The position numbers and the translations under genes are program-made. A DNA stretch of 64,000 nt, from positions 14,411-78,410 of the forward strand of contig NZ_LMVC01000005.1 of the NCBI RefSeq assembly GCF_001510655.1. The letters run 5' to 3'. The first letter of the stretch is position 1. Each line of letters starts with the position of its first letter. This DNA comes from Fictibacillus sp. FJAT-27399. GTDB taxonomy: Bacteria; Bacillota; Bacilli; Bacillales; Fictibacillaceae. Below, one piece after another: positions 57,448 through 59,352 of the stretch. The notes under the pieces were generated by a model. It saw only the letters and a program-made list of their open reading frames with translations, ran no database searches and was not told the DNA's origin.

Positions 57448-57711
57448 ATGCGCCAGATGAATCCTTACGGGTACGGACAGTATCCGCAGTACGGCATGCA
57501 GCCTGGAATGGGCTATGGACAGCCAGGCTATCCTGGTTACCCTGGCCAAGCTTACGGCCAGGGCGGATATATGGGAGCAGGTTACCATGGGATGGTCCCG
57601 GGTTATGGCCAAGGTGTTTACGGAGGCTATCCTATACAGAATCCTGCATACCCTCAGCAGTATACAAAACCGCCTCAAGGCGGCGGAGGATGCGGCTGCG
57701 GCGGCAGATAA
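57448..57711 (+). CDS. Tyr/Gly/Pro-rich coat-like protein
   Basis: An 87-residue low-complexity protein: repeated GYGQ/PGYPG/GYGQG units with many Tyr, then a PPQGGGGCGCGGR tail with two Cys. There is no signal peptide. Tyr/Gly/Pro-rich proteins of this kind (for example YeeK) are coat proteins that become cross-linked through tyrosines or disulfides; this assignment rests on composition and spore-gene surroundings. The start has only a weak site (GGAACG). A strong terminator follows directly. Confidence 0.6.
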   Translation: MRQMNPYGYGQYPQYGMQPGMGYGQPGYPGYPGQAYGQGGYMGAGYHGMVPGYGQGVYGGYPIQNPAYPQQYTKPPQGGGGCGCGGR

Positions 57712-57757: not shown

Positions 57758-58555
57758 TTATGATTTAAGGCTCTCTAAAAACCATTTTTCCGTAAAGTCC
57801 ACGAGTGGCTTTTGCCGAATCAGACGGGTTTCAGCAGAACCTGCAAGTCCTTTATTAACCTCAGAGCCGTGATGACTCTCAAATTCATGGCCGATCTGGT
57901 CAAACAGTTCTTCCCTGGTTTCTATTTTTTTATAAGTCTTCCAAACTCTTTGTCCTGATTCCATAACAGGGCTCCCCGTTTCCAATCCCTTTTGTCCGGG
58001 AATGCGGTATTCGGCCAGATGCATCGATGTATTGCTGCCATAGCCGACACCAATCAGCAGAACATAACCATCACGGTTATAGATTCCCGCCAGGGGGGAA
58101 CATTCACCAAACCCTTCATCTAATGCGTGATTTTCCATAAGTATTTCTTTGTCTTTCCCCCAAGCCGCAAAGGAAACGGTCGGATGTCCGCTTCTTATGA
58201 CACCGGGAAACGACCGGAAGGCATCCACAATGGCCCCCATCGAAAACGTTGGAGTAATGGAAGGTTCATAGGCTGGCATTTCGTCACGGATCGTTTGCCA
58301 CCAATCCTGAGGTACCGGCGGGTTTTCCCATTCGGAAGGATCAGAATAATCCACGGACTGGGTGGGCATCACCAGATTACCTTCCTCTGTTATGACATCC
58401 ATTAATGCCTGAACGACTGTTACAGGCCCACCGCAAACCCATCCGATCTTGCGTAAAGAAGAATGAACGATCACGGTCATTCCTTTTTTCAGTCCCAATT
58501 GCTTAAAATCTTCCCTTAAAGAAGTCCGAGTTCTCGGATACGATTCATTTATCAT
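57758..58555 (-). CDS. AAC(3)/YokD family N-acetyltransferase
   Basis: A 265-residue protein of the aminoglycoside 3-N-acetyltransferase family. GLKKGMTVIVHSSLRKIGWV, GPVTVVQALMDVITEEGNLV with MPTQS, YEPSITPTFSMGAIVDAFRS and VIRSGHPTVSFAAWG are the family landmarks, and SNTSMHLAEY includes the His of the acetyl-CoA site. B. subtilis YokD has the fold but does not clearly confer resistance, so a natural substrate other than aminoglycosides is likely. ATG follows an AT-rich weak site. Confidence 0.82.
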   Translation of the reverse strand: MINESYPRTRTSLREDFKQLGLKKGMTVIVHSSLRKIGWVCGGPVTVVQALMDVITEEGNLVMPTQSVDYSDPSEWENPPVPQDWWQTIRDEMPAYEPSITPTFSMGAIVDAFRSFPGVIRSGHPTVSFAAWGKDKEILMENHALDEGFGECSPLAGIYNRDGYVLLIGVGYGSNTSMHLAEYRIPGQKGLETGSPVMESGQRVWKTYKKIETREELFDQIGHEFESHHGSEVNKGLAGSAETRLIRQKPLVDFTEKWFLESLKS

Positions 58556-58642: not shown

Positions 58643-58669
58643 ACTTCTCTTCCTTCTCTACATACGATA
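58643..58669 (+). promoter_or_regulatory. SigK-like promoter of the UGA-containing peroxiredoxin
   Basis: CATACGATA (58661-58669) fits the SigK -10 CATANNNTA with AC (58643-58644) 16 bp upstream, the same spacing as the gerPF promoter. It lies 42 bp before the ATG. Confidence 0.45.
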
Positions 58670-58710
58670 GATAGACACAGCATACACCTATACGGAAAGG
58701 AGGGATTGGA

Positions 58711-59352
58711 ATGAGCATGCCCAATGATGGGGATCAGCATTACCCAAAACCATCCGTAGAACAGTTCAACACCTGCGGTCCTCAGCCTTATTGTGCAGGG
58801 CTTGGCGATATCGCTCCCGTATTTACCGCACCATCGATTCAAGACGGAGAGATCAAGGATGTTCGCCTGGAAGATTTTCACGGCAAATGGGTGATTTTGT
58901 TTTTTTACGGCAGTGATTTCACCTTTGTCTGACCGACAGAACTAGCGGCGGTCGCCGCTTTATACGGCGAGCTCAAGAAACTGAACACTGAAGTGCTCGG
59001 CATCAGTACGGACAGCGTGTTTTCTCATAAAGTATTTAAAGAAGTCTCACCTCTTGCTGGTAAGGTCCAATATCCGCTGATCAGCGACCGAAACCACCTC
59101 ATCAGCCGCGCCTATAGAGTATTGGACGCCCACAGCGGTGCCGCAGTAAGGGCTACAATCATCGTCGGCCCCGATGGTTATATTGCCAGCAAACTCATCT
59201 ATCCTTCCGAGGTCGGACGGAACGCCTACGAAATTCTGCGGCTTATTCAAGCCCTCCAATATGGTGAACACTCTCAAACCAGTATTCCGGCAAACTGGGT
59301 TCCCGGCATGCCCGGCCTCAACATGAACACAGAGGACATTGGAAGGTTTTAA
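58711..59352 (+). CDS. AhpC/Prx-type peroxiredoxin with in-frame UGA at the peroxidatic Cys; candidate selenoprotein
   Basis: Read through one TGA (58930-58932), the frame gives 214 residues of AhpC/TSA peroxiredoxin: GDIAPVFTAPS, DFHGKWVILFFYGSDFTFV, then the UGA, then PTELAAVAALYGELKKLNTE, VLGISTDSVFSHKVF, VRATIIVGPDGYI and IPANWVPGMPG. The normal active site is FTFVCPTEL, so UGA replaces exactly the peroxidatic Cys 74. The usual resolving Cys (VCPANW) is Ile here. No other stop or frameshift occurs. A hairpin 12 nt downstream could be a SECIS. AAAGGAGGG precedes ATG, and a SigK-like promoter precedes that. If UGA is a stop, the gene is a pseudogene with a 73-residue product. Confidence 0.6.
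58944..58959 (+). promoter_or_regulatory. Candidate bacterial SECIS hairpin
   Basis: AGCGGC and GCCGCT form a 6-bp stem with loop GGTC. The loop starts 18 nt after the UGA (17 nt between), within the 16-37 nt usual for bacterial SECIS elements, and its first two bases are G, as the consensus asks. Confidence 0.4.

What the first reader, a model, noticed from the sequence alone, without database searches (positions are those of the whole stretch)
58711..59352. Peroxiredoxin with UGA exactly at the peroxidatic cysteine: candidate selenoprotein in a Bacillus-like genome
Seen: a 214-codon AhpC/Prx frame is open except for one TGA (58930-58932), which falls at the C of FTFVCPTEL. A random nonsense mutation would hit this codon about once in 210 times. 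A hairpin with a 6-bp stem (58944-58959) has a loop that starts with GG 17 nt after the UGA, which meets the bacterial SECIS rules. The resolving Cys (VCPANW) is Ile, so chemistry would rely on the peroxidatic residue alone. A SigK-like promoter and the gerP/coat surroundings suggest a spore-associated enzyme. Inference: selenocysteine is inserted. Alternatives: nonsense pseudogene or a sequencing error (TGC to TGA).
Basis: partly seen in the sequence, partly recalled or inferred. Interest (0 to 1): 0.88.

Follow-up and report, generated by a model that had tools for sequence, protein, structure and literature searches.

The report
Spore-former peroxidase built with selenium
A bacterium of the genus Fictibacillus most likely reads an apparent stop signal in a peroxide-destroying enzyme as the rare selenium amino acid selenocysteine; the same design recurs in many related bacteria and may be switched on while spores are made.

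Summary
Frame 58711-59352 is an AhpC/Prx1-type peroxiredoxin open except for UGA at 58930-58932, the peroxidatic position. The genome has selA, selB, tRNA-Sec and a selD that itself carries UGA. UGA stands here in 80 of the 80 named relatives returned (best of 225) and in 52 of 53 orthologs from 397 genomes of the order. All 52 of those genomes have selA (181 of 397 do overall). The one exception codes Cys (TGT), lacks selA and selB, and has a degraded hairpin. A congener without selA or selB keeps only a remnant lacking the active site. The hairpin (6 bp, loop GGUC, 17 nt after UGA) shows synonymous constraint and covariation, though in the window's own RNA it is not the minimum-energy fold. 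None of 80 has the resolving Cys and 7 have no Cys at all, so a one-selenocysteine peroxidase is likeliest. A sigma-E/K-type -10 box is enriched upstream, so mother-cell expression is likely but unproven. The gerP neighbourhood was seen only in Fictibacillus. Sec-peroxiredoxins (PrxU) are known and RefSeq already reads through one family member: a new clade of a known kind.

The parts
58711..59352 (+). Selenoperoxiredoxin gene (213 aa with Sec74; end includes the TAA stop)
   Evidence: orthologs
58930..58932 (+). UGA codon for Sec74, the peroxidatic position
   Evidence: Cys (TGT) in the one selA-less ortholog
58944..58959 (+). SECIS hairpin: 6-bp stem 58944-58949/58954-58959, loop GGUC 58950-58953
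   Evidence: RNAalifold finds the same stem unaided; not the minimum-energy fold in the window's own 60 nt
58661..58669 (+). Putative sigma-E/K-type -10 box CATACGATA
   Evidence: CATANNNT in 58 of 80 family upstreams against 17.1 in dinucleotide shuffles
58643..58644 (+). Putative -35 AC (16 nt before the -10); assignment uncertain
58696..58704 (+). Shine-Dalgarno AAAGGAGGG
58921..58923 (+). Thr71 of the TxxU motif, catalytic
   Evidence: Thr in 80 of 80 named relatives
59149..59151 (+). Arg147, the likely active-site Arg
   Evidence: invariant in alignments A2 (28 rows) and A3 (41 rows); its role is recalled from Prx biochemistry
59284..59286 (+). Ile192 at the place of the C-terminal resolving Cys
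   Evidence: V63, I11, T5, A1, never C in 80 named relatives
58774..58794 (+). N-terminal Cys22 and Cys28, possible alternative resolving residues
   Evidence: 71 of 80 relatives have a Cys 30-60 residues before Sec, 9 do not

Best explanation
The gene encodes a selenocysteine peroxiredoxin of the AhpC/Prx1 type. SelB binds the hairpin just downstream of UGA58930 and delivers Sec-tRNA(Sec), so residue 74 is selenocysteine (Sec coding shown by comparative evidence; actual selenium content inferred). Sec74, with Thr71 and Arg147, attacks peroxide and becomes a selenenic acid. No Cys stands at the usual resolving position, so an outside thiol (thioredoxin or a low-molecular-weight thiol such as bacillithiol; both named from general knowledge) most likely reduces it (inferred). 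The gene appears to stand alone and is probably transcribed in the mother cell during sporulation from a sigma-E/K-type promoter; it would protect the developing spore or its coat from peroxide (inferred).
For: Sec machinery in the same genome: tRNA-Sec 54.2 bits against cut-off 47 and ARAGORN anticodon TCA, selB 371 bits, selA 552.9 bits, selD 399.1 bits with its own UGA. UGA in 80 of 80 named relatives and in 52 of 53 orthologs from 397 genomes; all 52 have selA, against 181 of 397 overall. The only Cys ortholog (G209, TGT) lacks selA and selB and has loop AATG. In 80 loci, third-base entropy of codons +5 to +9 is 0.47-0.83 against 1.43-1.97 at 14 other conserved fourfold codons; of 171 such codon pairs the two with the highest normalised mutual information are the loop-end and stem-wobble pairs. 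E. coli fdhF has the same GGUC loop 18 nt after UGA. Seven of 80 relatives have no Cys in the whole open frame. CATANNNT upstream: 58 of 80 loci, against shuffles 17.1 (SD 3.4, max 26), reverse strand 5, and 107 of 493 upstreams of other genes in the same loci.
Against: No selenium incorporation, activity or expression was measured. Single-sequence folding of 60 nt from UGA gives the hairpin in 22 of 28 and 62 of 80 orthologs, but not in the window itself (hairpin -10.5 alone, other fold -13.8; pair probability 0.23); leaving out the first 12 nt gives 27 of 28 and 77 of 80, and the window's lowest fold is still another one. In the covariation count, two of five measures are not above the shuffles (pairs changed on both sides 186/500 as high, further pair types 430/500). 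8 of 80 keep only 5 of 6 stem pairs. 71 of 80 relatives keep an N-terminal Cys that could act as resolving residue. 22 of 80 upstreams lack CATANNNT, only 44 of 80 have it 25-75 nt before the start, and the -35 is weak. gerP linkage was not found outside Fictibacillus. The Fisher test ignores shared ancestry.
Confidence: 0.9

Rival explanations
1. Nonsense pseudogene or sequencing error (TGC/TGT read as TGA).
For: One in-frame stop in an otherwise intact gene; a true remnant exists in a congener (G001). Raw reads were not available.
Against: UGA at the same codon in 80 of 80 named relatives from many separate assemblies; hairpin codons under synonymous constraint; no other in-frame stop in 28 of 28 orthologs.
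Confidence: 0.01
2. UGA is read through with another amino acid or by a suppressor tRNA, not as Sec; or it gives a regulated short product.
For: No selenium measurement here; in the window's own RNA the hairpin is not the lowest fold.
Against: Co-occurrence with selA (52 of 52), covariation of the hairpin, and Cys in the one ortholog whose genome lacks selA and selB.
Confidence: 0.02
3. A two-residue enzyme: the N-terminal Cys28 (PYCA motif) resolves the selenenic acid through a selenenylsulfide, within or between subunits.
For: 71 of 80 relatives keep a Cys 30-60 residues before Sec.
Against: 9 of 80 lack it, including Fictibacillus gelatini (L060), and 7 of 80 have no Cys at all.
Confidence: 0.25
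4. Selenoperoxiredoxin, but an ordinary vegetative antioxidant; the CATA boxes are incidental.
For: 22 of 80 upstreams lack the box and -35 elements are weak; gerP linkage was found only in Fictibacillus.
Against: 58 of 80 against a shuffle mean of 17.1 and 21.7% (107 of 493) in other genes of the same loci; hits concentrated 30-60 nt before the start; reverse strand 5 of 80.
Confidence: 0.25

Closest known systems
PrxU (NCBIfam NF040737; first described in Eubacterium acidaminophilum, Soehling et al. 2001, seen only as a citation in PMC13188914 and PMC9312934)
   Same: AhpC-type selenoperoxiredoxin with UGA at the peroxidatic position. One PrxU gene seen here, from a Chloroflexota plasmid (373.4 bits), can form the same stem with loop GGUC at the same spacing and also lacks the resolving Cys; its lowest single-sequence fold is another one.
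   Different: The window protein scores 163.8 bits against a cut-off of 270; the Bacillota Sec genes lie on a separate branch (97/95); promoter of sporulation type.
AhpC (TIGR03137), typical 2-Cys peroxiredoxin
   Same: Family and active-site motif; the best PDB matches are 2-Cys peroxiredoxins.
   Different: 157.5 bits against a cut-off of 272; Sec in place of Cys; no resolving Cys in 80 of 80.
'Peroxiredoxin (Prx)' selenoprotein family of the reviews (TxxU motif; PMC9312934 lists it as COG1225/Bcp, PMC13188914 as PF00578; passages seen)
   Same: TxxU motif (T71-U74).
   Different: The 2022 listing is Bcp-type; this is AhpC-type. The passages seen name no Bacillales Prx. Surveys may already count members: PMC1794560 lists 3 selenoproteins of 3 families in Bacillales without naming them in what I saw, PMC5029168 lists 91 Sec-Prx in 78 organisms.
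E. coli fdhF SECIS
   Same: Loop GGUC, 18 nt after UGA (17 here); ggttgcaggtctgcacc is named as the functional SECIS in PMC3834832 (passage).
   Different: Different gene; the predicted fdhF stem has an unpaired base where this one is a plain 6-bp stem.

Membership tests
Bacterial selenoproteins | In-frame UGA aligned with a redox Cys of homologs | tested here: met
Bacterial selenoproteins | SECIS hairpin directly 3' of UGA, conserved in the family | tested here: met
   with the caveat that it is not the lowest fold in the window's own sequence
Bacterial selenoproteins | selA, selB, selC, selD in the genome | tested here: met
Bacterial selenoproteins | Cys replacement tracks loss of the machinery | tested here: met
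   G209, one case only:
Bacterial selenoproteins | Selenium in the purified protein | not testable with these tools
   needs mass spectrometry or 75Se labelling
Peroxiredoxin superfamily (PF00578) | Pfam gathering score and catalytic Thr/Arg | tested here: met
   120 bits against 26; Thr 80 of 80; Arg invariant
Peroxiredoxin superfamily (PF00578) | Pro seven residues before the peroxidatic residue (PxxxT; recalled as usual, not absolute) | tested here: not met
   Gly in the window; S29, A19, G16, P14, T2 in 80 relatives
PrxU (NF040737) | Curated score 270 bits | tested here: not met
   163.8 bits
AhpC (TIGR03137), typical 2-Cys Prx | Curated score 272 bits and C-terminal resolving Cys | tested here: not met
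   157.5 bits; no Cys at the position in 80 of 80
sigma-E/sigma-K regulon | CATA-type -10 box at a sensible distance | tested here: met
   58661-58669; family statistics
sigma-E/sigma-K regulon | Matching -35 element | tested here: inconclusive
   C 55% and A 68% at -20/-19 from the box in 44 loci; AC-N14..18-CATANNNT in 24 of 80 against 4.1 in shuffles
sigma-E/sigma-K regulon | Expression dependent on the sigma factor | not testable with these tools
   no expression data

The most novel reading that the evidence does not exclude
A selenoenzyme tied to sporulation: Bacilli usually thought of as aerobic keep the Sec machinery to make a one-selenocysteine AhpC in the mother cell, where it guards the spore or its coat from peroxide. 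In the host genome none of the four formate dehydrogenase alpha subunits over the cut-off carries an in-frame stop, so this enzyme and SelD may be the main or only Sec proteins.
Probability: 0.5. Interest if true: 0.78.

Novelty: new member of a known kind. Interest (0 to 1): 0.58.

Why it matters
The 2026 review says aerobic bacteria rarely retain selenoproteins (PMC13188914, passage). This family was found in many genera of Bacillales, a number of them named strains in collections, so why they pay for selenium becomes testable. It offers a natural series (Sec; Cys where the machinery is missing; gene remnant) for Sec evolution. It also suggests a selenium dependence of sporulation or spore quality, and a peroxiredoxin whose redox chemistry may rest on a single Sec.

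Tried and rejected
Considered and rejected: pseudogene or sequencing error (UGA in 80 of 80); non-Sec readthrough; PrxU and AhpC membership in the strict sense (scores below curated cut-offs); Sec use for formate dehydrogenase in this host (4 Fdh-alpha over the cut-off, none with a stop; which residue stands there was not read); gerP linkage as general evidence for a spore role (5 of 80 loci). Neighbour clustering found no family near the gene in more than 21 of 80 loci, and that largest cluster varies in side, strand and distance. The loop ends, first taken as unpaired, vary only as G-C and A-T in 80 loci and as C-G or A-T in four genes outside the order, so they behave as a pair. A first promoter count held duplicates and was replaced. 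A first tree held two bad rows, a 29-residue fragment and a distant Prx; both were dropped and the tree rebuilt (whose bootstrap had not fully settled). There the Cys ortholog lies among the Sec rows with weak support (93/48), and a Sec-only clade is not rejected (p-AU 0.463): Sec to Cys is likely, not proven. AlphaFold gave a confident monomer (pLDDT 87.0, pTM 0.85; residues 1-9 low), but no fold search could be run, so nothing rests on it.

Not done: other selenoprotein families in the host were not searched beyond SelD and Fdh-alpha; raw reads and papers' supplements could not be seen; two papers on new selenoproteins cited by the review were not held; the 145 of 225 relatives not returned were not seen.

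Full report
What is there. The window lies in a 4.5-Mb genome (G000, 13 contigs). Its ortholog is 92% identical in Fictibacillus terranigra and 85% in F. solisalsi, F. enclensis and F. fluitans; the same-genus genome G005 has a contig of the same length (407,875) as the F. terranigra record, so the genus is Fictibacillus. At 58711-59352 a 213-codon frame with a strong Shine-Dalgarno site is open except for TGA at 58930-58932, in FTFV-U-PTEL. It is an AhpC/TSA peroxiredoxin (Pfam 120 bits against 26); its family profile matches 143 distinct PDB sequences at E up to 0.001, the best being 2-Cys peroxiredoxins (60 shown).

Machinery. The genome holds tRNA-Sec (54.2 bits against 47; ARAGORN anticodon TCA), selB (371 bits), selA (552.9 bits) and selD (399.1 bits with one internal TGA; it falls in KGG-U-GCK), all within about 5 kb of contig C1. 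selA is a discriminating marker: in the runs with E up to 1e-60 it rings only in E. coli among 14 control genomes.

Conservation and exchange. Of 149 genomes (own and relatives) 28 hold an ortholog at E up to 2e-66, and all 28 carry TGA at this codon with no other stop; all 28 have selA, against 88 of 149 overall (Fisher p 5e-8, ignoring ancestry). In a scan of 84,980 species genomes with patterns written for Cys, not UGA, 225 stretches encode a relative; the best 80 were returned, and all 80 have TGA (79, L099, which reads FTLVU). In 397 genomes drawn from the order, 53 hold an ortholog at E up to 1e-60, 52 with TGA; all 52 have selA, against 181 of 397 (Fisher p 1.8e-20, lists copied by hand from the tables). 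The exception, G209, has TGT (Cys), lacks selA and selB; its loop reads AATG, the loop Val has become Met, and 4 of 6 stem pairs remain (counted). Fictibacillus genome G001 lacks selA and selB and has, between the coat-like and LacI-type genes, only a remnant of the gene without the active-site segment. Phylum-wide, 11 of 398 genomes match at E up to 1e-60, all 11 with one TGA, nine of them outside the class; I read the hairpin in four of those nine.

SECIS. RNAalifold on 28 sequences returns the 6-bp stem unaided. Counted pairs: 97.6% of cells paired, 10 cells changed on both sides, covariation 0.242, each reached by 0 of 500 shuffles; but pairs changed on both sides (2) and further pair types (4) were reached by 186 and 430 of 500, and the shuffles do not remove relatedness. 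In 80 named loci codons +5 to +9 have third-base entropy 0.47-0.83, while 14 other conserved fourfold codons have 1.43-1.97; among 171 codon pairs the two with the highest normalised mutual information are +6/+7 (the loop ends: G-C 68, A-T 12) and +5/+8 (the stem wobble pair). In four genes outside the order the loop ends are C-G three times and A-T once. All six stem pairs are kept in 72 of 80, five in 8. E. coli fdhF has the same GGUC loop 18 nt after UGA, within the sequence that PMC3834832 names as functional SECIS (passage). Against this, folding single sequences of 60 nt from UGA gives the hairpin in 22 of 28 and 62 of 80 orthologs but not in the window, where GACCG near the UGA pairs with CGGUC (-13.8 kcal/mol; hairpin alone -10.5; its pair probability 0.23). 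Without the first 12 nt, which a ribosome at UGA would hold, it is 27 of 28 and 77 of 80, the window's lowest fold being still another. The 26-nt hairpin alone scores z -2.47. I judge that the comparison outweighs the thermodynamic prediction.

Chemistry. The resolving position is V63, I11, T5, A1 in 80 named relatives, never Cys; Thr71 is kept in 80 of 80; the Pro of PxxxT is not (S29, A19, G16, P14, T2); 71 of 80 have a Cys 30-60 residues before Sec, and 7 of 80 have no Cys anywhere in the open frame. A mechanism common to the family therefore cannot need an internal Cys, and the simplest is a single-Sec cycle with an external thiol. For members such as this one (Cys22, Cys28) an N-terminal partner remains possible. 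The reductant is not identified here.

Expression. Upstream of the start codon (starts chosen by Shine-Dalgarno score), CATANNNT occurs in 58 of 80 loci (81 considered, one dropped), against 17.1 (SD 3.4, max 26) in 200 dinucleotide shuffles, 5 on the reverse strand, and 107 of 493 upstreams of other genes in the same loci; hits concentrate 30-60 nt before the start. A sigma-A-like TATAAT with one mismatch shows little excess (72 against 68.2, SD 3.1). Of 80 loci, 44 have the box 25-75 nt before the start, with C (55%) and A (68%) at -20/-19. In C. difficile, sigma-E and sigma-K share very similar -10 sequences, and one sigma-K promoter has -10 CATATAAT with -35 AC (PMC3789822, passages); the B. 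subtilis consensus logos were not visible (PMC517825, passages). In the window the box is CATACGATA 58661-58669 with AC at 58643-58644. Neighbours are gerP genes and two Hsp20 genes (Pfam), but tblastn finds this neighbourhood, in flanks of up to 6 kb, in only the 5 Fictibacillus of 80 named loci. Mother-cell expression is thus likely but untested. In C. difficile the coat protein CotE, described as having peroxiredoxin activity, is under sigma-K (PMC3789822, passage), which makes such a role plausible.

What it is kin to. NCBIfam ranks PrxU first (163.8 bits against a cut-off of 270), then AhpC (157.5 against 272): neither membership is met. The one gene seen that passes PrxU (373.4 bits), on a Chloroflexota plasmid, shares UGA, a matching stem with GGUC at the same spacing and the missing resolving Cys, though its lowest single fold differs. 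The tree (37 rows: 28 of the 80 named loci, the window, a Cytobacillus plasmid copy, G209, the PrxU and five AhpC) puts the Bacillota Sec genes plus the G209 Cys gene on one side of a branch (97/95). So it works like PrxU; that it is PrxU's sister is probable but rests on one long PrxU branch.

Novelty. RefSeq already annotates a Cytobacillus spongiae plasmid copy across the UGA as 'peroxiredoxin' (WP_225003809.1). Sec-Prx is a listed selenoprotein family (PMC13188914, PMC9312934; passages), and earlier surveys may include members (PMC1794560: 3 selenoproteins in Bacillales; PMC5029168: 91 Sec-Prx; passages). In searches no listed title or abstract start was about a spore-linked or Bacillales Sec-AhpC; most subscription journals and all supplements were out of reach. 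Hence: a new clade of a known kind, with two unusual traits, the likely one-Sec chemistry and the sporulation-type promoter.

Verdict. Sec insertion: about 0.97. One-Sec mechanism: about 0.7. Mother-cell expression: about 0.7.

Noticed in passing
window 57758-58555 (-): An Antibiotic_NAT (aminoglycoside 3-N-acetyltransferase family, Pfam 291.5 bits) gene lies between the coat-like ORF and the selenoperoxiredoxin. A relative was found in 2 of 5 named Fictibacillus loci (L057, L058); in F. terranigra DNA the end of the coat-like ORF lies directly before the Prx promoter. Substrate unknown.
   Followed up: partly
L053 2610-2987 (genome G001): Remnant of the selenoperoxiredoxin gene without the active-site segment, in a Fictibacillus lacking selA and selB: a natural case of decay where the Sec machinery is missing.
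   Followed up: partly
window 58931-58953 (+): In the window and some relatives the bases GACCG over and after the UGA can pair with CGGUC of the hairpin loop side, a fold that competes with the SECIS. It may be chance from the conserved codons or a switch.
   Followed up: partly
L054 4540-5508 (-) and upstream: The host selD is itself a UGA gene (KGG-U-GCK), with a predicted hairpin just downstream.
   Followed up: partly
L141-L144 (genome G000): Four formate dehydrogenase alpha subunits above the curated cut-off, none with an in-frame stop: the most widespread bacterial Sec user seems not to use Sec here.
   Followed up: no
G133:C1:4227065-4227622 (-): A second, more distant Prx match (43%, 1 TGA) in a genome that already has the selenoperoxiredoxin; it may be another Sec-Prx or simply the terminal stop.
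   Followed up: no
L150 3004-3600 (Cytobacillus spongiae 690-kb record): The selenoperoxiredoxin lies on a large linear record annotated as plasmid, so it may move between replicons.
   Followed up: no
window 57448-57711 (+): Small Gly/Tyr/Pro-rich ORF ending in GGGGCGCGGR, with no Pfam match; possibly a spore coat or crust protein.
   Followed up: no
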